IMG/VR virus record: IMGVR_UViG_3300009537_000020
Location: 1 to 50,348 of that record
Source: a virus
Length of the DNA: 50,348 bases
Direction: 5' to 3' (one strand)
Below the pieces are notes generated by a model. It was not told the DNA's origin and ran no database searches. It was given only the letters and a program-made list of their open reading frames with translations. This document shows positions 34,740 through 50,348 of this stretch, piece after piece (position 1 is the first letter of the stretch; the number at the start of each line of letters is the position of its first letter). The position numbers were made by a program, and so were the translations under genes.

Positions 34740-36356
34740 TTACATTGACTTTGGTTTTGGTGTCCTTGCCGGTTCAACCTCTTCATCCTCTGAACACAAA
34801 CATTCCGTGGTTAGAAGCATTCCGGCGACAGAAGCGGCATTGACCAAGGCGGTCTTAACAACCTTAGCGGGGTCAATAACACCCATTTCCATCAGGTCAC
34901 CGTATTTATTTGTTAGAAAATCGTACCCGTCATTAACGCCGAGCATCAATTTAATTTGGGCGATGATCTCAGACCCTTCAACCCCGGCGTTAAAAGCGAT
35001 CTGAATTAACGGAGCGCGCAATGCTTTTTTAACAATGCGTTGGCCAATCAACTCCTCTTCCGTTTCCTTTCCTGTTTCTTTGATGGAGTCGGTTGAATGA
35101 AGGTACGCCAAACCGCCGCCTGGAACGATGCCGTCCTCAAGAGCCGCCCTGGTAGCCAAAAGCGAGTCCTCGATCCTCATTTTCTTTTCCTTCTGTTCAA
35201 CCTCGGTCGGCGCGCCGACTTTGATAACGGCAACCCCGTTTGTTAGCTTTGATAATCGTTCCCGGAGCTTTTCCCGGTCATAATCGCTTTCTGATTTTTC
35301 GATCTGCTGTTTTATAGACGTTATTCGGCCTTCAATAACCGATTTGTCACCTTTGCCATCAACTATGGTTGTAAAATGGCGCGTGGCTTTGATCGTTTCA
35401 CATTCGCCTAAATGGCTAAGATCAGCGTCTTCAGGCCGAAGGCCGCTTACCGGCCCTATGATGCTGCCGCCGGTTAATGCCGCAATATCACTTAATTGTT
35501 CTGTTCTAAACTCACCAAAATACGGAGATTTTACAACAACAAGTGAAATATTATTCTTCATCCTTGTCTGGACAAGGTTTTGTAATACGGATGCGTGGAC
35601 CGAATTAGCCATCAAACAGACTGCCCGGCCGGTGTTGATCGCTTTCTCAATGATCCCCTTGATCTGATTAACATGAGAAATGTCGCCATCGATAATGATT
35701 ATGTACGGCTTTGACATATTAGCTTCCATCTTAACCGGGTCGGTAATGAAATACGGGCTCATTAACCCTTCCATGAGCTGCATCCCTTCCATGATCTCAA
35801 TAAAAGTATCGCTCCCCTGGTAATTATCCTCAATGGTAATAACGCCGTCTTCCCCGGCCGTCTTTACCGCTTCATTGATCAATTCGCCGATCCCGCGGTC
35901 ATTATTAGCTGATAACGAGGCAACTTTTATGATTGTTTCCTCTTCGATCAATTTTATCTTTGTGCTGTCAATGTATTTAATGACCTCTTCAACCGCTTTA
36001 TCGATGCCCCGTTTGATTAAGATCGGGTTTGCCCCTGATTTAAGGACTTTTAACCCTTCCGTAAAGATTTCCTGGGCAAGTAATGTGGCCGTTGTTGTCC
36101 CGTCGCCGGCGTCATCAGCCGTTTTCTGGGCCACTTGTCGTACCAATAAAAGGCCGAGTTGTTCGTCCGGATCCTTTGCTTCAACCTGTCGCGCTACAGT
36201 TACCCCGTCCTTTGTGCATACCGGATAACCATAATGGAACCCAAAAATCATATTCCGCCCGCGTGGCCCGAGTGTGACCTTTACCGAATTTGCAATAAGG
36301 TCAACGCCTCTTTTAAGTTTTTCCCTGGCTTCGTCCGAAAATGTTACTGACTTCAT
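34740..36356 (-). CDS. groEL: GroEL-type chaperonin
   Basis: 538 residues, near the normal 548. Group I chaperonin with apical, intermediate and equatorial domains in order: KDGVTV (Asp50, equivalent of E. coli Asp52), DAGDGTTTATLL (Asp85, equivalent of Asp87), IEDSLLATRAA (equivalent of Asp398) and PGGGLAYL. So the ATPase residues are kept. The tail lacks the GGM repeat and ends in an acidic and basic stretch (EDEEVEPARTPKPKSM). AAAGGAGGCA precedes the ATG. A phage GroEL is uncommon; folding of capsid or ejection proteins is the likely role. Host contamination is unlikely, as it lies inside an early operon. Confidence 0.95.
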   Translation of the reverse strand: MKSVTFSDEAREKLKRGVDLIANSVKVTLGPRGRNMIFGFHYGYPVCTKDGVTVARQVEAKDPDEQLGLLLVRQVAQKTADDAGDGTTTATLLAQEIFTEGLKVLKSGANPILIKRGIDKAVEEVIKYIDSTKIKLIEEETIIKVASLSANNDRGIGELINEAVKTAGEDGVITIEDNYQGSDTFIEIMEGMQLMEGLMSPYFITDPVKMEANMSKPYIIIIDGDISHVNQIKGIIEKAINTGRAVCLMANSVHASVLQNLVQTRMKNNISLVVVKSPYFGEFRTEQLSDIAALTGGSIIGPVSGLRPEDADLSHLGECETIKATRHFTTIVDGKGDKSVIEGRITSIKQQIEKSESDYDREKLRERLSKLTNGVAVIKVGAPTEVEQKEKKMRIEDSLLATRAALEDGIVPGGGLAYLHSTDSIKETGKETEEELIGQRIVKKALRAPLIQIAFNAGVEGSEIIAQIKLMLGVNDGYDFLTNKYGDLMEMGVIDPAKVVKTALVNAASVAGMLLTTECLCSEDEEVEPARTPKPKSM

Positions 36357-41042: not shown

Positions 41043-41897
41043 CTAATGTGTTGGGTTAAGCTTATTTTGCTTTTTAAGTCCTAACATCTTAATTAATGTT
41101 TTGGTTTGCCATTTTCTTTCAGCATCCCTAGCAGCATCCCTAGCAGCCCTAGCAGCAGCCCAAGCGGCAGCCCCAGCAGCCCTAGCGGCATCCCAAGCAG
41201 CAGCCCTAGCTGCATCCCCAGCAGCCCCAGCAGCAGCCCAAGCGGCATCCCAAGCGGCAGCCCTAGCGGCATCCCAAGCAGCAGCCCTAGCGGCATCCCA
41301 AGCAGCAGCCCTAGCTGCATCCCCAGCAGCCCAAGCGGCATCCCTAGCAGCATCCCCAGCGGCATCCCTAGCAGCAGCCCCAGCAGCAGCCCTAGCGGCA
41401 TCCCAAGCAGCAGCCCAAGCGGCATCCCTAGCAGCAGCCCCAGCGGCATCCCCAGCAGCAGCCCTAGCAACAGCCAATTCTTCTTTGCTTATTTCCCCTA
41501 ACGCAAATAGTCTAGCTTTTTCTATTACAATTCTAGGTCTTTTATCGTTAGGGTATTCCTTTTCAAATATCGGCAATACTCTTTTTGCACATTTGACAAC
41601 GAATAGCCTTGCGTTCTTATCATTCCACGAATCAATACGCCTAATTAGCCTTGCCTGTTGGGCGACAACCTTATTGTCATCCTTAATAATGGTCCCCTTT
41701 AACTCAACTTCATAAAGTTCTTTGTTTGTCCATTGAATTAAATCTTTTTGTTCACAGGCATGATAACCCCTCTTACATAACCCAATATCTTCGATGAAGG
41801 GCATCCACTTGCCCTTACGTTTACCTTTAGGTAAATACCACTTGCCTGTGCCATAAGCTGGTTCGCCGTCTTTTTGAAGAAATTTGTAGTATTTCAT
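41043..41897 (-). CDS. Ala/Arg/Asp/Trp-repeat protein (DUF7666-like head)
   Basis: 284 residues. The first 140 residues (WYLPKGKRKGKWMPFI, KRGYHACEQKDLIQW, ELYEVELKG, ARLIRRIDSWNDKNARLF, VLPIFEKEYPNDKRPR) match phage proteins with a DUF7666-like head. Residues about 145-260 are a long amphipathic helix of AAAWDAARAA-type repeats. The start follows AAGGATAGGAT. Function not known to me. Confidence 0.75.
   Translation of the reverse strand: MKYYKFLQKDGEPAYGTGKWYLPKGKRKGKWMPFIEDIGLCKRGYHACEQKDLIQWTNKELYEVELKGTIIKDDNKVVAQQARLIRRIDSWNDKNARLFVVKCAKRVLPIFEKEYPNDKRPRIVIEKARLFALGEISKEELAVARAAAGDAAGAAARDAAWAAAWDAARAAAGAAARDAAGDAARDAAWAAGDAARAAAWDAARAAAWDAARAAAWDAAWAAAGAAGDAARAAAWDAARAAGAAAWAAARAARDAARDAERKWQTKTLIKMLGLKKQNKLNPTH
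41118..41470 (-). repeat. GC-rich tandem coding repeat (units of about 9-24 nt)
   Basis: About 350 nt of degenerate repeats with cores such as GCCGCTAGGGCTGCT and GCTTGGGATGCC; three 24-nt units stand in a row near 41264-41330. The high-GC insert contrasts with the AT-rich genome. All of several frames stay open here on both strands, an effect of the repeat. Copy number changes by slippage are expected. Confidence 0.7.
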
Positions 41898-43921: not shown

Positions 43922-44139
43922 TCACTCACCACCTAAGCGTTGTAGTGCTTCAGTAATAACATCAACAACATCGCATTCATCTGGGTTCCACTTCTTTAAT
44001 GCTGGAACAATCGTATCAAGAACATCCGAAAGTTTAACGAGTTTTTCTTCTCCGAGTGGTTCGAGTTCGATAACCGCTCCGAGCGTACCGCCATTCAAAT
44101 AAGATGAACCCTTAACTATATCCTGTACTTTTTACCCAT
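43922..44139 (-). pseudogene. frameshifted small gene (or -1 frameshift site)
   Basis: AAGGAGATTGAA and ATG at 44139 open a frame that stops after 7 codons (MGKKYRI). A -1 shift at GGT AAA AAG continues into VQDIVKGSSYLNGGTLGAVI...VVDVITEALQRLGGE, about 68 sensible residues ending in TGA at 43922. The run of five A at the switch point suits either a sequencing/assembly indel, a decayed gene or programmed slippage. A start at the in-frame TTG (STYLNGG region) would be a third explanation. Confidence 0.5.
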
Positions 44140-44150
44140 TTCAATCTCCT

Positions 44151-44160
44151 TTTAAAGAAC
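44151..44160 (-). promoter_or_regulatory. boxA-like motif 4
   Basis: GTTCTTTAAA on the minus strand, following RNA unit B and merging into the AAGGAG ribosome site of the next gene. Resembles the rrn boxA core (TGYTCTTTAAMA). Confidence 0.5.
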
Positions 44161-44309
44161 TTGGGGAGGCAGGGATTTGACTAGATTTGCGTCGGATTTA
44201 CGTTAATTAGATTAACCACCTCACTAGTATAGTCACCCTGCAAGCGTCTATGGCGTTATCCATAGAATCTAGTGTTGCGTCTTTCTCGCTCTATTCCGCC
44301 ACTCCCCAA
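44161..44309 (-). ncRNA. structured RNA unit B of a tandem array
   Basis: 149 nt closed by the perfect stem TTGGGGAG (44309-44302)/CTCCCCAA (44168-44161). Inside, ACTAGAT (44273-44267) pairs ATCTAGT (44186-44180), TCTATGG/CCATAGA (44266-44260, 44253-44247) forms a 6-nt-loop hairpin and GTTAAT/ATTAAC (44216-44211, 44207-44202) another. GCAGGG (44241-44236) could pair with CCCTGC (44174-44169), crossing the middle stem as a pseudoknot. The 5' part resembles the acceptor and D arm of tRNA-Leu, but no anticodon arm fits. Confidence 0.6.
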
Positions 44310-44310
44310 T

Positions 44311-44322
44311 TATCAAAAGAAC
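44311..44322 (-). promoter_or_regulatory. boxA-like motif 3
   Basis: GTTCTTTTGATA on the minus strand between RNA units C and B. Shares the GTTCTTT core with three other spacers at intervals of 162-169 nt. Confidence 0.45.
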
Positions 44323-44483
44323 AAAATCGGCACGTACGCTGATACGTCTACCCAAATTCTATCTGTGGCTGTGTTCAGGACACTTTTCAATAGTGGCGTC
44401 TGCCTTGGCACTACCACAAGCAACCCGTTAAACCCGTCGGCTAACCGTGATTCACCGATAGAAAGGCGTAACGCACCGATTTT
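44323..44483 (-). ncRNA. structured RNA unit C of a tandem array
   Basis: 161 nt closed by a 13-bp stem, AAAATCGGTGCGT (44483-44471)/ACGTGCCGATTTT (44335-44323), with two G-T wobble pairs. Inside, TTCTATC (44463-44457) pairs GATAGAA (44363-44357), and GTGT-CCTGA-ACAC (44383-44371) is a hairpin. It shares ACGGGTTGCT(T/C)(G/A)TGG with unit A. No open reading frame with a ribosome site. Family unknown. Confidence 0.6.
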
Positions 44484-44493
44484 TAAAGAACAA
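44484..44493 (-). promoter_or_regulatory. boxA-like motif 2
   Basis: TTGTTCTTTA on the minus strand, continuing AAAAT into unit C. The whole TTGTTCTTTAAAAAT is close to the rrn antitermination boxA (E. coli TGCTCTTTAACA; Bacillus TGTTCTTTGAAAA). Confidence 0.55.
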
Positions 44494-44641
44494 TGGTCGA
44501 AGGGGGCAGGGTTTGACCTGCAATTCTCAATCCACCCATGAGCAACCCGTCGTCACGTCTGCTCGCCCGTGGTTCAAGCCGTCACATATCCACTTGAGAA
44601 CTCACCACCTAGCGGCTCACTGTCCGCCACCCCGACGACCA
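44494..44641 (-). ncRNA. structured RNA unit A of a tandem array
   Basis: 148 nt closed by TGGTCG (44641-44636)/CGACCA (44499-44494), extended outward by AACAA/TTGTT and inward by GGGG/CCCC. Inner elements: TGGCGG-N8-CCGCTA hairpin (44629-44610), TTCTCAA (44600-44594)/TTGAGAA (44530-44524), GAGCA/TGCTC (44564-44560, 44544-44540) and a T-arm-like hairpin GCAGG-TCAAAC-CCTGC (44521-44506). It follows directly on the stop of the Cys-rich peptide gene. Confidence 0.6.
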
Positions 44642-44655
44642 TATTGTTAAAGAAC
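44642..44655 (-). promoter_or_regulatory. boxA-like motif 1
   Basis: GTTCTTTAACAATA on the minus strand, directly beyond the stop codon of the Cys-rich peptide gene (its G lies in TAG). Closest match in the window to rrn boxA (TGCTCTTTAACAAT). Confidence 0.6.
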
Positions 44656-44807
44656 TAATTACACCAAGTACACATTGACTGGCAATAACCCCATTGATAA
44701 CCCCTGGAAGTGCAGTCTGTAACACATTTCCAATCTGTTTGGCAATAAGCATAAGCTATTGTTGTGAATAATGACAATATTGCTAATAAGATCAATAATC
44801 TTTTCAT
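44655..44807 (-). CDS. secreted Cys-rich mini-protein
   Basis: 50 residues from the ATG at 44807 with AAGGAGGAATATA upstream. A 20-residue signal peptide (MKRLLILLAILSLFTTIAYA) is followed by a 30-residue core with six Cys (CQTDWKCVTDCTSRGYQWGY, then C, C and C). The even number of Cys and aromatic spacing suggest three disulfides. Similar DW.CV.DCT..GYQ..YCQ peptides occur in proteobacteria and phages, function unknown to me. Possibly a periplasmic inhibitor. Confidence 0.75.
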   Translation of the reverse strand: MKRLLILLAILSLFTTIAYAYCQTDWKCVTDCTSRGYQWGYCQSMCTWCN

Positions 44808-44825
44808 TATATTCCTCCTTAAATT

Positions 44826-44878
44826 CCGCCCCTTTTGGAAGCACTACACGGTTGGCGTACCATTGGTAGGAGGGGCGG
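44826..44878 (-). promoter_or_regulatory. structured leader of the Cys-rich peptide gene
   Basis: CCGCCCCT (44878-44871)/AGGGGCGG (44833-44826) pair over 8 bp around a 37-nt loop that contains TACC-AAT-GGTA. It ends just before the AAGGAGG ribosome site. May regulate translation or act as a processing barrier. Confidence 0.5.
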
Positions 44879-44885
44879 TTGGTTA

Positions 44886-45107
44886 TTAAGAAAGATCTTC
44901 CTTTGCCGCCTTAGCTTCCGGTGATAGATCCGAGTCTAATTCATCCTGAAAATCATCGATTGGCCTGATAGATATCTTATTCACCGAGCTTTCTTTACTA
45001 ACATATTCAATGACTTCGTCTAACAAAATGCAGGCGCAATCAATCTTTGCCTTGCTCGTCGGTTTTTCCAACATCTTCCGTATTGCTTTCAGATTGTTTA
45101 GAAGCAT
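44886..45107 (-). CDS. unknown early protein
   Basis: 73 residues, helical with two Cys (IDCACILLDEVIEYV) and an acidic C-terminus. Its start lies 68 nt inside the end of the upstream gene in another frame; AATCTGAAAGCAATACGG precedes no clear ribosome site, so the ATG is less certain. Confidence 0.5.
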   Translation of the reverse strand: MLLNNLKAIRKMLEKPTSKAKIDCACILLDEVIEYVSKESSVNKISIRPIDDFQDELDSDLSPEAKAAKEDLS

Positions 45108-45890: not shown

Positions 45891-48800
45891 TTATTTTTGT
45901 CGTCGGGACTTGCGGATAATAGCTGGGGATGCTGCTTTAATATGCAGTATTTTACGTTCTAATTCACGCATTTTATCGGCGTCGTACATCTTTCGCATCT
46001 CACGTAAAATGATTTCTTTCTCCTCATTTGTTCTGGCGGTCATAAGCATATCAAGATATACGTTTGGCCCGCGCTCTTTTTCTTGTTTTATATCATCACG
46101 AATATTTTTCATTTGGCGTGTGGTTGGATTGTCATAAAGTTTTTTAGATATATCTTTTGATACTTTATTTAAGCTTTCTCCTTTTTCTATACGATCAGCC
46201 GCCTTATCTATAAGCTCACGCTTCAATATAGTTCTTTTGGCCTGATCCTTATCAATATCCTCACGAACCTTGCGTAATGACTCAGTTTTACCGTAATCAC
46301 TTACTTTTATAAGCCTATTTACCCCTGGAACCTTCCTAATAATTGACTCAAATGTTGTCTGGCTCTTGTCAGAATACGTTGCAAATTGAACAAGGCCAGA
46401 GTTATTTGTCGTCCATTGTACCATTTTCTTTAAAGAAGGCCATCCTCCAGCCTTCCAGGCGGTGTCAGAAATAAGATATTGACCGCGGAAGGCATCATAA
46501 GGGTTTTTACCGGTTAAATACTGGATCCACGCCCCTGACATCTCAATACCAGGGGCAAGGCCAGGCATCTGACCAGATCCGAATGCGAAAATCTGTTGCA
46601 ATTGTTTAGGGTCTTTTTCGTAAATTCCCATTCCAACTTTCCAAAAAATAGCTGTCATTAATCGTCCGGTTTCATCGTGAGGTATTCTAAAATAAACAGT
46701 CTTTCCGTTCGAATCTTTCCCGACCGGTATAATAATATAATTAGTCTTATCGTATTCACTTATATTATCGTATAAGTCTTTTATCTCTTTGCCGGCCAAC
46801 CCTATAGAAGCAGCAATCATTAAAAATTTTGGCAATATATTTATTTTAAAATGTGACCACCAGAATCCGCTTCTTGTCTTTGGATGCGTAGCCAGCTGTG
46901 CATCTGCCTTCAGCCCTTCTTTCATAATATTAGAGAACATCCAGACTGAGTTTGTAACAGATGTTATCGTACCTCCTCGACGATAATTAGGAGTACCAAT
47001 ATAATTCCTTGTCATATACGAAACTTGTTTTTGACTAAGATTAGGATCGTCCTTTAATATATTATACCCGGCAATTTTAGATAAAGACTCTAACGTGCTG
47101 CCCATGAACCGAACCCCCTCCATAAAAGCTAACAACGGACGAAGTAACGGCTTCATTAATTTCTGGTATTGATGTTCCTCCCCTTTTAATATTCCAAGCT
47201 GTCTTAAAATACCGTGATAATCATCGCCATGAATATCAAAATTAAAATCTATAAAAGGAATGTCAAGGGCGTACGTACCAAGCATTTCTTTAATGGTGTT
47301 ATCTTCTAAACCCATCTGTCTACGAATAGACGTCGGTAAAGCTTGAGCATACACAGATAGCAGTTTCAAAAGAGATACTTTCTGCCCCATAGCGTTCAAG
47401 TTTGCATAAGTACGCTTGAAGTCACGGATAGGGTTGAAAGCAAAAGCGAATCCAGGGTTATATGTAATATAAAGATTCTTAAATATTTGATTTCCGAAAA
47501 CTTTATTTATTAAATGGCCAACAAGCATAACATCACCATCTTTGTTAGCTTCCACAGATTTTGCTATATACTGATCTACCTCATAAGCGGTAAGTTTCCC
47601 GTCTTCCAGAAGCTTAATTAATCCCATGCCGGATCCAGGCTTTGGTTTAGCAAAATTACCTCTAATATCTTTCTTAACAAGTTTAATTTCTCCCGGGAAA
47701 GATTTTTTAAGCCAATCACGCAACTGGTTTGCCGCCCTTTGTCTGGAATTTAACCGGTTTAAAGATATCATTTTTAAGATGGTAGTTATAAATGGATTCT
47801 CAATGTCAAGCAGGGTACCTTTCTGCATTTTTACAGTAGCCGGAACATGCTCTTGAAGATAATTTAAAACTCCAAAAGTTGCATAATACCCTTTATTTGG
47901 CTTGATAATATTCTCAAAGGTCTCTCTATTATAACTTCCGACTCTGACAGCCTCTTCAATTATAGGCCAAATTATTTCGTGGAAATCCCGAGCTATCCTT
48001 TCGATCTCATTAAATTTTTCAGGCCCGATCTTCTCTGCAAAGAATCTCATCTGTTCGGCTGCGCTCTTTGGTGAATACCCTAACGGATTTGCAATATCCT
48101 TCCTACCGGGGACATTAAAGAATTCTTTCTTCATCATCTCGCCTTCTTCTTCAGAAAAAGGCATAAATTCTTCTGGAGGAGATTGTATATCTCCCTGTAA
48201 GGGCATTTCAGGGCGGCCCATAACACGTTTTAGAAATAAATAAATACCTAAATCGTCATCTTTCATCCCAATCTCTGTTAAGGGCTTATTCACCTTATTA
48301 TCAATATCGGACATTAAAAGAAAATTATCGTTGTCAACTAAGGATCTTTCTTCCAATTCATACTCCGGGCTTTCCGACGGTGGCAAGAATTCACCTTTAC
48401 TTTCTATCGATCTGCGCTTTGCAATGATTGGATAATTAATATCATCAACCATCTGCCTTATTCGTTCCCAATAATTAACATTAGAAAGTTCTTTTTCTTT
48501 TCGTTTTTGATCGCGGAGTTCCTCCCCTTTGGCATACATCTGACGTATATCTTCGTCGCGCCTTTTCAATAACTCCGCCGGTTTACCATCAAGAATATCC
48601 TGGATATAAAAATATTCTTGTTTAACTAAAGATTTTTTATCAAGAGCCTCAAAAAATAATTCAAAAGTTTCCGGGGCGATCTTCTTTGCAAGACTTGGGT
48701 TGTTAAAAAGAACAGACACGAAATCAGCGTACAGTTCCACGCTGCTATAACGGTATTTTATATATCCTTCGCTTGATAGCGCTTCATCAAATGGTTTCCA

Positions 48801-50348
48801 CTTTTTGGTCAAAGCTTTCAACTCTTCTCTTAATTCCTTATTTGTGACAACATTTTCCCCGAAAGTATTTTTTAAGAATTTCCTAAGAGAAAACAGCCGG
48901 CCATATATATTCCCACGCTTCATTGTATTCTGAGGAACATAATCAATCAAATGACCAATCTCATGCGCCAGAGTTGATGCCAATTGTTCCTCATTACCAC
49001 GTTTGAATAATTCATAATTGATTCCTATTTGCCCCTGTTCACGCGGATAGAATTTACCGTAACTTGCAGGATATTTCTTTGGTATCGGTGGCCCGCCCAT
49101 AATATCACTGGCAATCTTTACCATTTCGATAACTGGTATTGGCTTCACATCAACGGTTTCTGATTCTTGCGGGAGTCCTTCTGCTGTCTCATCGACGGAG
49201 CTAAGTTGCTCTGGGGATTCTTTATTCTTAGATCGCTGTCTTTCAATTAATGCTTTCTTATAATCATAAATATCTTTAGCAGCATCTAATATTTCTTGAT
49301 CTGATAATGAATCAATCTTTTGTCTATCAATATCTGTACTCTTTTGCCCATGCCATTTTAAACTTTCTCGCATATTTCCGATAATATCTTTTCGAGTCAT
49401 CCCGGCGGTTCCATCATTATCAAGATAACTTTTATATAAACTGCTCAATAAATTCTCAATAGAACCCCATTCTTCTGATACATTATCTCCCTCTACGTCT
49501 TGGCCTGTATTTGGATCTATAAGTCCTGGACTTCCTTCGCTTATACGTTCTGCGTAAACCGATTCTAAAGAATCCAATACTTCCTGGGTTAATCCTCTTT
49601 CGTACGCACCTTCTATGAAATACTCTAGTTCTGTTATGTTGAGCTTCCTAGCTTCATTCTCAATTTCCTGTAATTCCTTAGATTTGGTTCTTGGAGGACT
49701 GTCTTCTTCATCCCACGTATCTTCTTTACTAAGCGGTTCGTCTTGATTAGCCTTTCGTACAATTGCTGATGTTTCTGATTCCGAAATGCCTTCCGTATTG
49801 GCTTGTCCACCGTACACCTCCTTATGCCAGCCTCTTAATAATTGAGCGGTCTCAATCTGTTTATTAGTCAGCGGCTTATCATTATTAATTGCAGCAAACA
49901 TTGGGACCATGTGATCGTGATTAAGCCCTATATTTTTCAACTCCGTCGGGAATGTTGAGGGGCTTCTTATCTTTGACCCTGGACGGTCACCAGGGATTAA
50001 CGGACCTCCTGCCACCCAATCACCAGACAAAATCTCAACTTCTTTTAAAGCCTCTTTATCTTCTATAGTAAGAATAGGTTGCTTTGATGCCGGCTTATTT
50101 GATCGCAATACCCTTCCTTTTTTATCTCTCCTCAACGGCTCCGGTTCTACTTTAAAATTAAGAAGCCCTGGCTCCTCTGTAACCGTTGGTTCACTTGTTA
50201 TTTGATCGAAAACATCTCCCTTACCTTGTTGGGGATTAATCTCAATAGGCTTTCCCTGCTCATCTCTGGCTATTCTTGGCTTTATATCAGACGGCTCAAA
50301 GGTTATTTGGTCAAATATATCTTTTCCTGGTTTAATTGGCTCTGCTTT
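45891..50348 (-). CDS. giant polyvalent ejection protein with HEIGH metalloprotease motif (5' end cut by window edge)
   Basis: Open for 1485 codons from the window edge to the stop at 45891. The first 50 residues shown contain KDIFDQITF and GDVFDQITS, the same motif as the fragment at 1-827. A gluzincin-type zinc site AHEIGHLIDYVP lies at about 48951-48965 with a helical region after it. Further on (FFAEKIGPEKFNEIERIARD, LNRLNSRQRAANQL, TYNPGFAFAFNPIRDF) it resembles the LPD38-type polyvalent phage proteins. Probably an internal virion protein that enters the host with DNA. The frame does not join directly to that of 1-827. Confidence 0.8.
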   Translation of the reverse strand, partial: KAEPIKPGKDIFDQITFEPSDIKPRIARDEQGKPIEINPQQGKGDVFDQITSEPTVTEEPGLLNFKVEPEPLRRDKKGRVLRSNKPASKQPILTIEDKEALKEVEILSGDWVAGGPLIPGDRPGSKIRSPSTFPTELKNIGLNHDHMVPMFAAINNDKPLTNKQIETAQLLRGWHKEVYGGQANTEGISESETSAIVRKANQDEPLSKEDTWDEEDSPPRTKSKELQEIENEARKLNITELEYFIEGAYERGLTQEVLDSLESVYAERISEGSPGLIDPNTGQDVEGDNVSEEWGSIENLLSSLYKSYLDNDGTAGMTRKDIIGNMRESLKWHGQKSTDIDRQKIDSLSDQEILDAAKDIYDYKKALIERQRSKNKESPEQLSSVDETAEGLPQESETVDVKPIPVIEMVKIASDIMGGPPIPKKYPASYGKFYPREQGQIGINYELFKRGNEEQLASTLAHEIGHLIDYVPQNTMKRGNIYGRLFSLRKFLKNTFGENVVTNKELREELKALTKKWKPFDEALSSEGYIKYRYSSVELYADFVSVLFNNPSLAKKIAPETFELFFEALDKKSLVKQEYFYIQDILDGKPAELLKRRDEDIRQMYAKGEELRDQKRKEKELSNVNYWERIRQMVDDINYPIIAKRRSIESKGEFLPPSESPEYELEERSLVDNDNFLLMSDIDNKVNKPLTEIGMKDDDLGIYLFLKRVMGRPEMPLQGDIQSPPEEFMPFSEEEGEMMKKEFFNVPGRKDIANPLGYSPKSAAEQMRFFAEKIGPEKFNEIERIARDFHEIIWPIIEEAVRVGSYNRETFENIIKPNKGYYATFGVLNYLQEHVPATVKMQKGTLLDIENPFITTILKMISLNRLNSRQRAANQLRDWLKKSFPGEIKLVKKDIRGNFAKPKPGSGMGLIKLLEDGKLTAYEVDQYIAKSVEANKDGDVMLVGHLINKVFGNQIFKNLYITYNPGFAFAFNPIRDFKRTYANLNAMGQKVSLLKLLSVYAQALPTSIRRQMGLEDNTIKEMLGTYALDIPFIDFNFDIHGDDYHGILRQLGILKGEEHQYQKLMKPLLRPLLAFMEGVRFMGSTLESLSKIAGYNILKDDPNLSQKQVSYMTRNYIGTPNYRRGGTITSVTNSVWMFSNIMKEGLKADAQLATHPKTRSGFWWSHFKINILPKFLMIAASIGLAGKEIKDLYDNISEYDKTNYIIIPVGKDSNGKTVYFRIPHDETGRLMTAIFWKVGMGIYEKDPKQLQQIFAFGSGQMPGLAPGIEMSGAWIQYLTGKNPYDAFRGQYLISDTAWKAGGWPSLKKMVQWTTNNSGLVQFATYSDKSQTTFESIIRKVPGVNRLIKVSDYGKTESLRKVREDIDKDQAKRTILKRELIDKAADRIEKGESLNKVSKDISKKLYDNPTTRQMKNIRDDIKQEKERGPNVYLDMLMTARTNEEKEIILREMRKMYDADKMRELERKILHIKAASPAIIRKSRRQK

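What the first reader, a model, noticed from the sequence alone, without database searches (positions are those of the whole stretch)
44142..44655. Triple tandem array of structured RNAs separated by boxA-like motifs
Seen: three consecutive 148-161-nt units (A, C, B), each closed by its own strong terminal stem (6+ bp, 13 bp, 8 bp) and each with an inner long-range stem. Four copies of GTTCTTT (three continuing as TTT[A/T]A or similar) separate and flank them at intervals of 164, 169 and 162 nt. No gene fits on either strand. Known: rrn boxA (TGYTCTTTAAMA) recruits NusB/S10 for antitermination. Inference: this may be a previously undescribed nut-like or decoy RNA array that recruits or titrates Nus factors, or a series of small RNAs released by processing at the spacers. 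The units differ in sequence but share architecture and an ACGGGTTGCTYRTGG motif (A, C).
Basis: partly seen in the sequence, partly recalled or inferred. Interest (0 to 1): 0.9.

Follow-up and report, generated by a model that had tools for sequence, protein, structure and literature searches.

The report
Phage array of anticodon-less tRNA-like RNAs
A bacterial virus carries three folded RNAs in a row, at least one of which belongs to a widespread and apparently unnamed viral RNA family that looks like a leucine tRNA without its decoding arm and with an extra piece plugged into its T-loop.

Summary

U3 belongs to an RNA family that I found in about 75 other IMG/VR loci: a covarying acceptor-like stem, a tRNA-Leu-type D-arm, a covarying 6-bp T-stem, and a 51-81 nt insert exactly between T54 and T55 of the T-loop. 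No anticodon arm is recognisable. Rfam 15 and ARAGORN did not name the members tested. On 38 selected members 99.2% of paired cells hold, with 193 double changes against 48 in shuffles; of all 90 pattern hits, 77 have a full T-stem against 29 when reshuffled. U1 is probably an insertion-less paralogue (independent model, E 0.005, second in the window after U3). U2 has no relative.

The spacers match boxA (S2 and S4 equal a Legionella CRISPR-leader boxA), but only 6 of 76 relatives have GTTCTTT just upstream, so boxA is an optional partner. Most likely these are stable, tRNA-processed non-coding RNAs, with boxA helping polymerase through 0.5 kb of untranslated RNA. The molecular job is unknown. 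The Nus-decoy idea is not supported.

The parts
44655..44807 (-). 50-aa ORF with signal-peptide-like start and Cys-rich tail (MKRLLILLAILSLFTTIAYA...CTWCN); its stop codon overlaps spacer S1
   Evidence: translation; signal peptide judged by eye
44649..44655 (-). spacer S1 GTTCTTTAACAAT, boxA-like
   Evidence: 22-nt identity (E 0.5) with a leader upstream of the SAM-hydrolase gene in T7-like phages
   Evidence: R1 15.6 bits E 0.019; R2, trained on neither U1 nor U3, 17.9 bits E 0.005, second in the window
44485..44491 (-). spacer S2 GTTCTTTAAAAAT, boxA-like
   Evidence: contains the 11-nt boxA quoted in PMC7862264
   Evidence: terminal stem 0 of 500 shuffles, z -2.5; no model hit up to E 10
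44316..44322 (-). spacer S3 GTTCTTTTGATAA, weakest boxA match
   Evidence: fits the register of 62 other members; R1 92.2 bits (in training set); R2 23.7 bits E 1.3e-4 (not in training set)
44277..44299 (-). U3 D-arm, GCG...CGC with GGAATAG start as in tRNA-Leu
   Evidence: alignment A2; coordinates checked
44242..44276 (-). U3 variable region V1 in place of the anticodon arm, with hairpin CTATGG/CCATAG
44181..44234 (-). U3 T-loop insert (54 nt) between T54 and T55, closed by CTAG/CTAG
   Evidence: pairing counts
44154..44160 (-). spacer S4 GTTCTTTAAAAGGAG, runs into the Shine-Dalgarno of the next ORF (ATG at 44139)

Best explanation
The locus is a cluster of phage-encoded tRNA-like non-coding RNAs inside an operon. 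SHOWN by comparison: U3 belongs to a virus-borne family that keeps the acceptor stem, D-arm and T-arm of a leucine-type tRNA, shows no recognisable anticodon arm, often seals the acceptor in a longer helix (6-14 bp) and carries a closed insert between T54 and T55. SUPPORTED: U1 is a paralogue without the insert; U2 is a further closed RNA of unknown type. INFERRED: the RNAs are cut out of the operon transcript by host RNases that recognise tRNA-like ends or long helices and persist as stable RNAs that do not decode. INFERRED: the boxA-like spacers load NusB/S10 so that polymerase crosses about 0.5 kb of untranslated RNA without Rho termination, as boxA does before rRNA and CRISPR arrays. Likelihoods: family membership of U3 about 0.97; U1 a paralogue 0.75; non-decoding stable RNA 0.7; boxA function of the spacers 0.45. 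What the mature RNA binds is open; a host factor that reads the tRNA elbow is my first guess (0.3).
For: 63 distinct full-length members in one register. Covariation on 38 of them: 99.2% of cells paired, 193 double-change cells against 47.6 (sd 6.4) in shuffles; changes on both sides in 8 of 8 acceptor pairs, 5 of 6 T-stem, 2 of 4 insert-stem, 1 of 3 D-stem pairs. These members were chosen for T-stem and acceptor pairing; among all 90 raw pattern hits, whose T-stem was not in the pattern, 77 have 5 of 5 T-stem pairs against mean 28.6, max 39 over 1000 reshufflings. Control: 198 other viral loci (1.76 Mb, ten of them kin of the window by terminase or RecT) gave the known G001 copy and one match of 16.2 bits, E 0.24. 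A second covarying set without insert, 8 sequences: 96.9% paired, 35 double changes against 10.7. Its model ranks U3 and U1 first and second in the whole window. A twin pair in one phage shares 56 tested nt (V1 plus T-stem start) exactly, one copy with the insert and one with a canonical TTCGAAT loop. Nearest ORFs of at least 100 aa lie on the same strand in 98 of 121 cases. Anticodon arm in 4 of 63 against 3.4 shuffled. Not named by Rfam at gathering threshold in 12 member loci.
Against: No transcript data. U2 is unexplained. boxA-like spacers are absent upstream of 70 of 76 relatives, and in L457 and L458 GTTCTTT lies in an extended terminal stem (by eye). R1 also recognises real tRNA-Leu at 26-37 bits (tRNA-Leu confirmed by ARAGORN for the five I checked), so weak matches, including U1's 15.6-17.9 bits, show tRNA-Leu likeness rather than membership. 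U1 has two acceptor mismatches. Conservation of GTGACTATAC and GTCAAATC, and the insert length range, follow partly from the search pattern. Only 6 of 71 loci have an ARAGORN tRNA within 1 kb. Processing and Nus loading are inferred.
Confidence: 0.55

Rival explanations
1. The T-loop insert is a very small intron: excision at T54/T55 restores a canonical TTCAAAT loop, and a phage or host RNA ligase joins the halves.
For: Same position between T54 and T55 in the 63 members; insertion-less twin with identical V1 in the same phage; RNA ligase models matched 3 of 120 scanned neighbouring proteins.
Against: With the insert left out ARAGORN calls only 2 of 63, and no anticodon arm is recognisable that would make a tRNA useful. 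51-81 nt is far below known self-splicing introns (recalled). The insert is closed by a covarying helix, which also fits a permanent structural element.
Confidence: 0.12
2. Cis-acting element: the tRNA-like fold in the 5' leader of the next gene acts as a processing mark or a regulator of translation or termination, as tRNA punctuation does.
For: The array ends in the Shine-Dalgarno of the next ORF. Several relatives are followed within about 30-40 nt by a Shine-Dalgarno and start codon (by eye, not counted and without control). Same-strand flanking ORFs 98 of 121.
Against: Neighbouring proteins are diverse: 218 PHROG families among 120 proteins, the commonest matched by 4, which does not suit a dedicated regulator. 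Dense phage operons place any RNA before a start codon.
Confidence: 0.2
3. Decoy or mimic: the RNA competes for host proteins that read the tRNA elbow or T-loop (tRNA modification enzymes, RNase P, or a tRNA-targeting defence).
For: D- and T-arm elements retained without a recognisable anticodon arm. Virus-borne distribution: the pattern matched 2 of 1,191 cellular genomes drawn from three phyla, and neither match has all four insert-stem pairs (by eye).
Against: No binding data. A CCA follows a 7- or 8-bp acceptor in only 2 of 63, which speaks against decoys for CCA-end enzymes unless CCA is added later.
Confidence: 0.2
4. One reading: the array titrates NusB/S10 through four boxA spacers.
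For: Four boxA-like spacers; a partial parallel with GTTCTTTAA spacers beside tRNA-Leu in L282.
Against: Only 6 of 76 relatives have GTTCTTT within 60 nt upstream. It is the RNA fold, not the spacer, that recurs in other phages.
Confidence: 0.05
5. Decaying tRNA pseudogenes or att-type tRNA fragments without function.
For: No recognisable anticodon arm, long insertions, near tRNA-Leu sequence; tRNA-Leu-derived repeats exist in L282.
Against: Strong covariation across diverse phages in stems that would drift in pseudogenes.
Confidence: 0.03

Closest known systems
tRNA-Leu (Rfam RF00005 tRNA)
   Same: D-arm of the GGCGGAATAGGTAGACGC type, T-stem and TTCAAAT-type loop halves; R1 hits ordinary tRNA-Leu at 26-37 bits; the insertion-less twin passes RF00005 (34.3 bits)
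   Different: no recognisable anticodon arm, T-stem 6 bp, acceptor helix often beyond 7 bp, CCA at the expected place in 2 of 63, 51-81 nt insert between T54 and T55; ARAGORN did not call the members in 24 loci
tmRNA
   Same: tRNA-like ends without an anticodon arm (recalled)
   Different: no tmRNA model match; Rfam and ARAGORN negative at default thresholds; forced low thresholds gave only overlapping low-grade calls on both strands
ROOL and GOLLD RNAs
   Same: large structured phage and prophage RNAs of unknown function, often near tRNA islands (PMC12286853, passages read)
   Different: much longer (GOLLD often over 800 nt by that passage; ROOL's length recalled); no Rfam match here
boxA of rRNA operons and CRISPR leaders
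   Same: GTTCTTTAAAA identical to the L. pneumophila Lens CRISPR boxA (PMC7862264); placed before untranslated structured RNA
   Different: four copies in 0.5 kb; Nus binding untested
bacterial and phage Y RNAs (YrlA), recalled
   Same: RNA with a tRNA-like module in phages
   Different: no Rfam match at E up to 5 in 44000-44900; no Ro60/TROVE domain in the 30 window proteins scanned with Pfam; the other window ORFs were not scanned with Pfam

Membership tests
tRNA | cloverleaf with anticodon arm | tested here: not met
   canonical anticodon arm in 4 of 63 against 3.4 shuffled, V1 start placed by a rule of thumb; ARAGORN tRNA in the window
tRNA | D-arm and T-arm | tested here: met
   D-stem 95.6% and T-stem 100% of cells paired; the T-loop is interrupted in insert-bearing members
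tRNA | 7-bp acceptor and CCA end | tested here: not met
   acceptor helix 6-14 bp (counting stopped at 14), 50 of 63 longer than 7 bp; CCA encoded after 7 or 8 bp in 2 of 63. CCA added after transcription is not excluded
tRNA-like family with T-loop insert (this report) | common register, covarying acceptor and T-stem, insert at T54/T55 | tested here: met
   U3; independent model
tRNA-like family, insertion-less form | same ends without insert | tested here: inconclusive
   U1: E 0.005 and 0.019, two acceptor mismatches and a 6-nt T-loop
tRNA-like family | match to either model | tested here: not met
   U2: no match up to E 10
boxA / nut-like antitermination site | boxA sequence | tested here: met
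   S2 and S4 contain a published boxA; S1 close; S3 departs after GTTCTTT
boxA / nut-like antitermination site | binding of NusB/S10 and antitermination | not testable with these tools
   needs binding or reporter assays
boxA / nut-like antitermination site | conserved with the RNA units | tested here: not met
   GTTCTTT upstream in 6 of 76 relatives, enriched but not general
Rfam 15 families | covariance match | tested here: not met
   window 0 at gathering; 44000-44900 none at E up to 5; 12 member loci only two tRNA hits, outside the member coordinates; 8 loci at E up to 0.1 only the insertion-less twin, as tRNA
tmRNA | tRNA-like ends plus tag ORF | tested here: not met
   ARAGORN 0 at default; low-grade calls only at forced thresholds

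The most novel reading that the evidence does not exclude
Phages of several lineages carry a class of small RNAs built on a leucine-tRNA chassis with the decoding arm removed, in which a 51-81 nt module sits exactly between T54 and T55. The module could be a new kind of mini-intron whose removal restores the T-loop, or the reader head of a new class of tRNA-mimicking viral effector RNA. Arrays such as this one would make several such RNAs from one boxA-protected transcript.
Probability: 0.35. Interest if true: 0.92.

Novelty: new variant of a known kind. Interest (0 to 1): 0.78.

Why it matters
A conserved, virus-borne tRNA-like RNA that standard tools miss would add a family to phage biology and could explain many apparently empty operon gaps. 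The insert at the T54/T55 step, with an insertion-less twin in the same genome, poses a sharp question (intron or structural module) that RNA sequencing can answer. If boxA guards such arrays, it adds an example beyond rRNA and CRISPR of boxA protecting untranslated RNA.

Tried and rejected
Homology by the shared motif: AACGGGTTGCTNRTGG gave 105 viral stretches. None passed the screen for flanking spacers; I read three, and the five best U2 matches are one terminase coding region. What I read were coding repeats, tRNA-Phe-derived terminator repeats in Enterobacterales and a Pseudoalteromonas repeat. 37 of the 86 genome loci have extra copies inside, a period under 100 nt, which I take for CRISPR arrays without testing it. 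Five of the 86 have only the spacers and paired ends in both units: L282, read, is the partial parallel told above; L292, read, is a terminator repeat; L259, L324 and L327 were not read. Flanking proteins: no relatives in IMG/VR for two queries and one distant RecT; no phage match for the downstream ORF. DNA search: only a 22-nt match in three T7-like phages. A group-I-intron reading of U3, from pairings seen by eye, was dropped: no Rfam match at E up to 5, and comparison supports other helices. A pseudoknot in the insert is only weakly supported: 21% against 12% shuffled, above all 50 shuffles. Terminase-kin phages: 3 of 50 records match R1, one an ordinary tRNA-Leu, one of 44 bits without insert. 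L451's two adjacent hits are one long member, not a tandem pair. Rows dropped before counts: of 90 pattern hits (85 distinct cores) 80 had at least 4 of 5 T-stem pairs; 63 with full T-stem and an acceptor of at least 6 bp were kept, U3 included; two of them, L475 and L514, lie on one contig; the alignment used 38 of the 39 with short V1, L494 left out. The 76 copies leave out truncated, near-identical and split matches. Only 50 of 80 kin loci and 50 of the family loci were searched as whole records. Literature (open-access library only): no such family in the titles and abstract starts listed, which is no proof of absence. I saw passages of three papers. Mended after re-checking the calls: I had written that no other spacer array was found; L282 is one in part.

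Full report
Setting. The window is one IMG/VR virus record of 50,348 bases, a tailed phage with RecE, RecT, GroEL, portal and terminase genes, only distantly related to sequenced phages (terminase 28.9% identity in the best-covered match). The finding lies on the minus strand. The gap between a 50-aa Cys-rich ORF (stop at 44655) and the Shine-Dalgarno of the next ORF (ATG 44139) is filled by the array.

Check of the observation. Terminal stems of U2 and U3 are beyond 500 shuffles, U1's is not (33 of 500); folding is more stable than shuffled sequence by z -1.7, -2.5, -3.3 for U1, U2, U3. The U1/U2 shared motif is not significant (9 of 300).

Finding relatives. Spacer and motif searches gave no relative of the units. 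A terminase alignment gave 80 kin loci, and a DNA comparison with 50 of their records showed three short matches close together in the nearest kin, G001. There a 186-nt RNA (992-1177) shares TGGCGGAATAG, GGGTGACTATACnAG and GTCAAATCCC with U3. The pattern GTGACTATACN{42,72}GTCAAATC then matched 90 IMG/VR stretches.

The family. Of these 90, 77 have a perfect 5-bp T-stem that was not part of the pattern, against mean 28.6 and at most 39 over 1000 reshufflings. Sixty-three distinct members, U3 included, fit one register: acceptor (6-14 bp) - TG - GCGG AATAGGTAGA CGC - V1 - 6-bp T-stem - T54 - GACTATA - 4 bp - V2 - 4 bp - TCAAAT - T-stem - acceptor. On 38 of them the 21 pairs hold in 99.2% of cells, with double changes in 16 pairs and 193 cells (shuffled 47.6, sd 6.4); sliding the partners drops pairing to 39-48%. 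Members were chosen for T-stem and acceptor pairing, so those two helices are favoured; the insert stem and the 3' side of the D-stem were not used in the choice. The covariance model R1 finds 93 matches at E up to 0.1 in 79 loci that the pattern had brought in. In 198 other viral loci it finds only the known G001 copy (L331) and one match of 16.2 bits.

Relation to tRNA-Leu. R1 scores a genuine tRNA-Leu of G049 at 35 bits. In five cellular genomes its 23 matches lie between 26 and 37 bits; the four that I checked are tRNA-Leu genes by ARAGORN. Insert-bearing members mostly score above 45 bits, and truncated ones less. The pattern occurs in 2 of 1,191 cellular genomes from three phyla, neither with all four insert-stem pairs. 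A canonical anticodon arm is found in 4 of 63 against 3.4 expected. With the insert left out ARAGORN of 63. CCA follows a 7- or 8-bp acceptor in 2 of 63. Rfam 15 named none of the members in 12 loci.

The insert. In the phage of L463 two copies share V1 and the start of the T-stem exactly (56 nt tested). One has the insert; the other has GCAGG TTCGAAT CCTGC and passes Rfam's tRNA model. So the insert is a discrete module between T54 and T55. Insertion-less relatives elsewhere carry TGCAAAT, TTCGAAT or similar loops; eight of them covary as well (96.9% paired, 35 double changes against 10.7).

U1 and U2. Model R2, built from those eight and from neither window unit, ranks U3 (23.7 bits, E 1.3e-4) and U1 (17.9 bits, E 0.005) first and second in the whole window; third is 10.0 bits. 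R1 agrees (U1 15.6 bits, E 0.019; next 9.2 bits). U1 is therefore probably an insertion-less paralogue, with two acceptor mismatches and a 6-nt T-loop. U2 matches nothing.

Arrays and neighbours. Clusters of tRNA-like units recur: L485 (insertion-less copy, 3 nt, insert-bearing copy), L463 (two members with another tRNA-like RNA and a closed-stem RNA between them, by eye), L462 (three matches in 0.8 kb). Among 71 loci 6 have an ARAGORN tRNA within 1 kb, though other tRNA-like RNAs that ARAGORN misses are visible beside several (by eye). Nearest ORFs of at least 100 aa lie on the same strand in 98 of 121 cases. Proteins around the RNAs are diverse: among 120 scanned, several terminase families, integrases, annealing proteins, 3 RNA ligases. 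So the RNA occurs in different phage lineages and is not tied to one gene.

Spacers. S2 and S4 contain the 11-nt boxA that raised precursor expression across CRISPR arrays in Legionella (PMC7862264, passages). S1 shares 22 nt with the leader upstream of the SAM-hydrolase gene of T7-like phages, at E 0.5. In relatives GTTCTTT lies within 60 nt upstream in 6 of 76 against 7 of 639 in the other upstream bins and 8 of 718 in ten downstream bins; antisense 0 of 76. That is an enrichment, but the spacer is not a family trait. One partial parallel to the array stands in a Bacteroidia genome (L282): two near-identical 137-nt closed units whose first bases copy a tRNA-Leu, between GTTCTTTAATATGAT spacers, followed by the same spacer and an ordinary tRNA-Leu(TAA). 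R2 does not recognise these units (8.4 bits, E 0.34), so I count them as tRNA-Leu-derived repeats and not as members; they show that such spacers can precede tRNA-Leu-type RNA in cells. A boxA role is plausible and local.

Mechanism. Shown: fold, register, covariation, insert position, absence of a recognisable anticodon arm. Inferred: co-transcription, release by tRNA-type or double-strand-specific RNases, stability, and boxA-aided passage of polymerase. Unknown: the partner of the RNA. The intron, cis-element and decoy readings stay open, with the tests that would separate them given above.

Novelty. Ten full-text searches in the open-access library showed no description of such a family in the listed titles and abstract starts; subscription papers were not covered. 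I rate it a new variant of a known kind, because the chassis is tRNA, with a fair chance that it deserves a class of its own.

Noticed in passing
window 44139 downward, minus strand: The ORF after the array is broken: the ATG frame stops after 7 codons, and the long frame (VQDIVKGSSYLNGG...) continues past an AAAAAG run; either a frameshift site or an assembly error.
   Followed up: partly
window 44655-44807, minus strand: 50-aa Cys-rich ORF with a signal-peptide-like start directly before the array.
   Followed up: no
window 41043-41897, minus strand: Protein with Imm5-like domain and a long AAWDAARA repeat tail.
   Followed up: no
window 34740-36356, minus strand: GroEL-like chaperonin, 46% to Bacteroides phage proteins, in a 50-kb phage record.
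   Followed up: no
window 45891-50135, minus strand: 1414-aa polyvalent protein with weak LPD38 and SprT/M48-like matches, 24% to a Pelagibacter phage protein.
   Followed up: no
L463 5399-5562 and L560 222-320 (same phage G073): Twin tRNA-like RNAs with identical V1, one with the T-loop insert and one with a canonical T-loop.
   Followed up: yes
L282 260-664: Bacteroidia genome with two 152-bp direct repeats, each a GTTCTTTAATATGAT spacer plus a closed 137-nt unit that starts like tRNA-Leu, just before an ordinary tRNA-Leu(TAA).
   Followed up: partly
L502, L510, L482, L463 around the members: Further odd RNAs missed by ARAGORN: tRNA-like units lacking an anticodon arm and 70-220 nt RNAs closed by strong terminal stems.
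   Followed up: partly
L451: Phage locus with 33 ARAGORN tRNAs and a family member of about 300 nt with a very long V1.
   Followed up: no
L260, L262, L281, L292, L321: Tandem repeats of about 165 nt in Enterobacterales with a tRNA-Phe-like fragment and a terminator-like hairpin.
   Followed up: no
L227 1156-1177 (Escherichia phage vB_Eco_D226): 22 nt identical to spacer S1 in the leader upstream of the SAM-hydrolase gene of T7-like phages, with a second CTCTTTAA site before that gene.
   Followed up: partly
L437, L475, L480, L487 inserts: A subset of inserts shares TAACAAAYTGATAGCY and a likely pseudoknot (GGAG/CTCC or GGGG/CCCC).
   Followed up: partly
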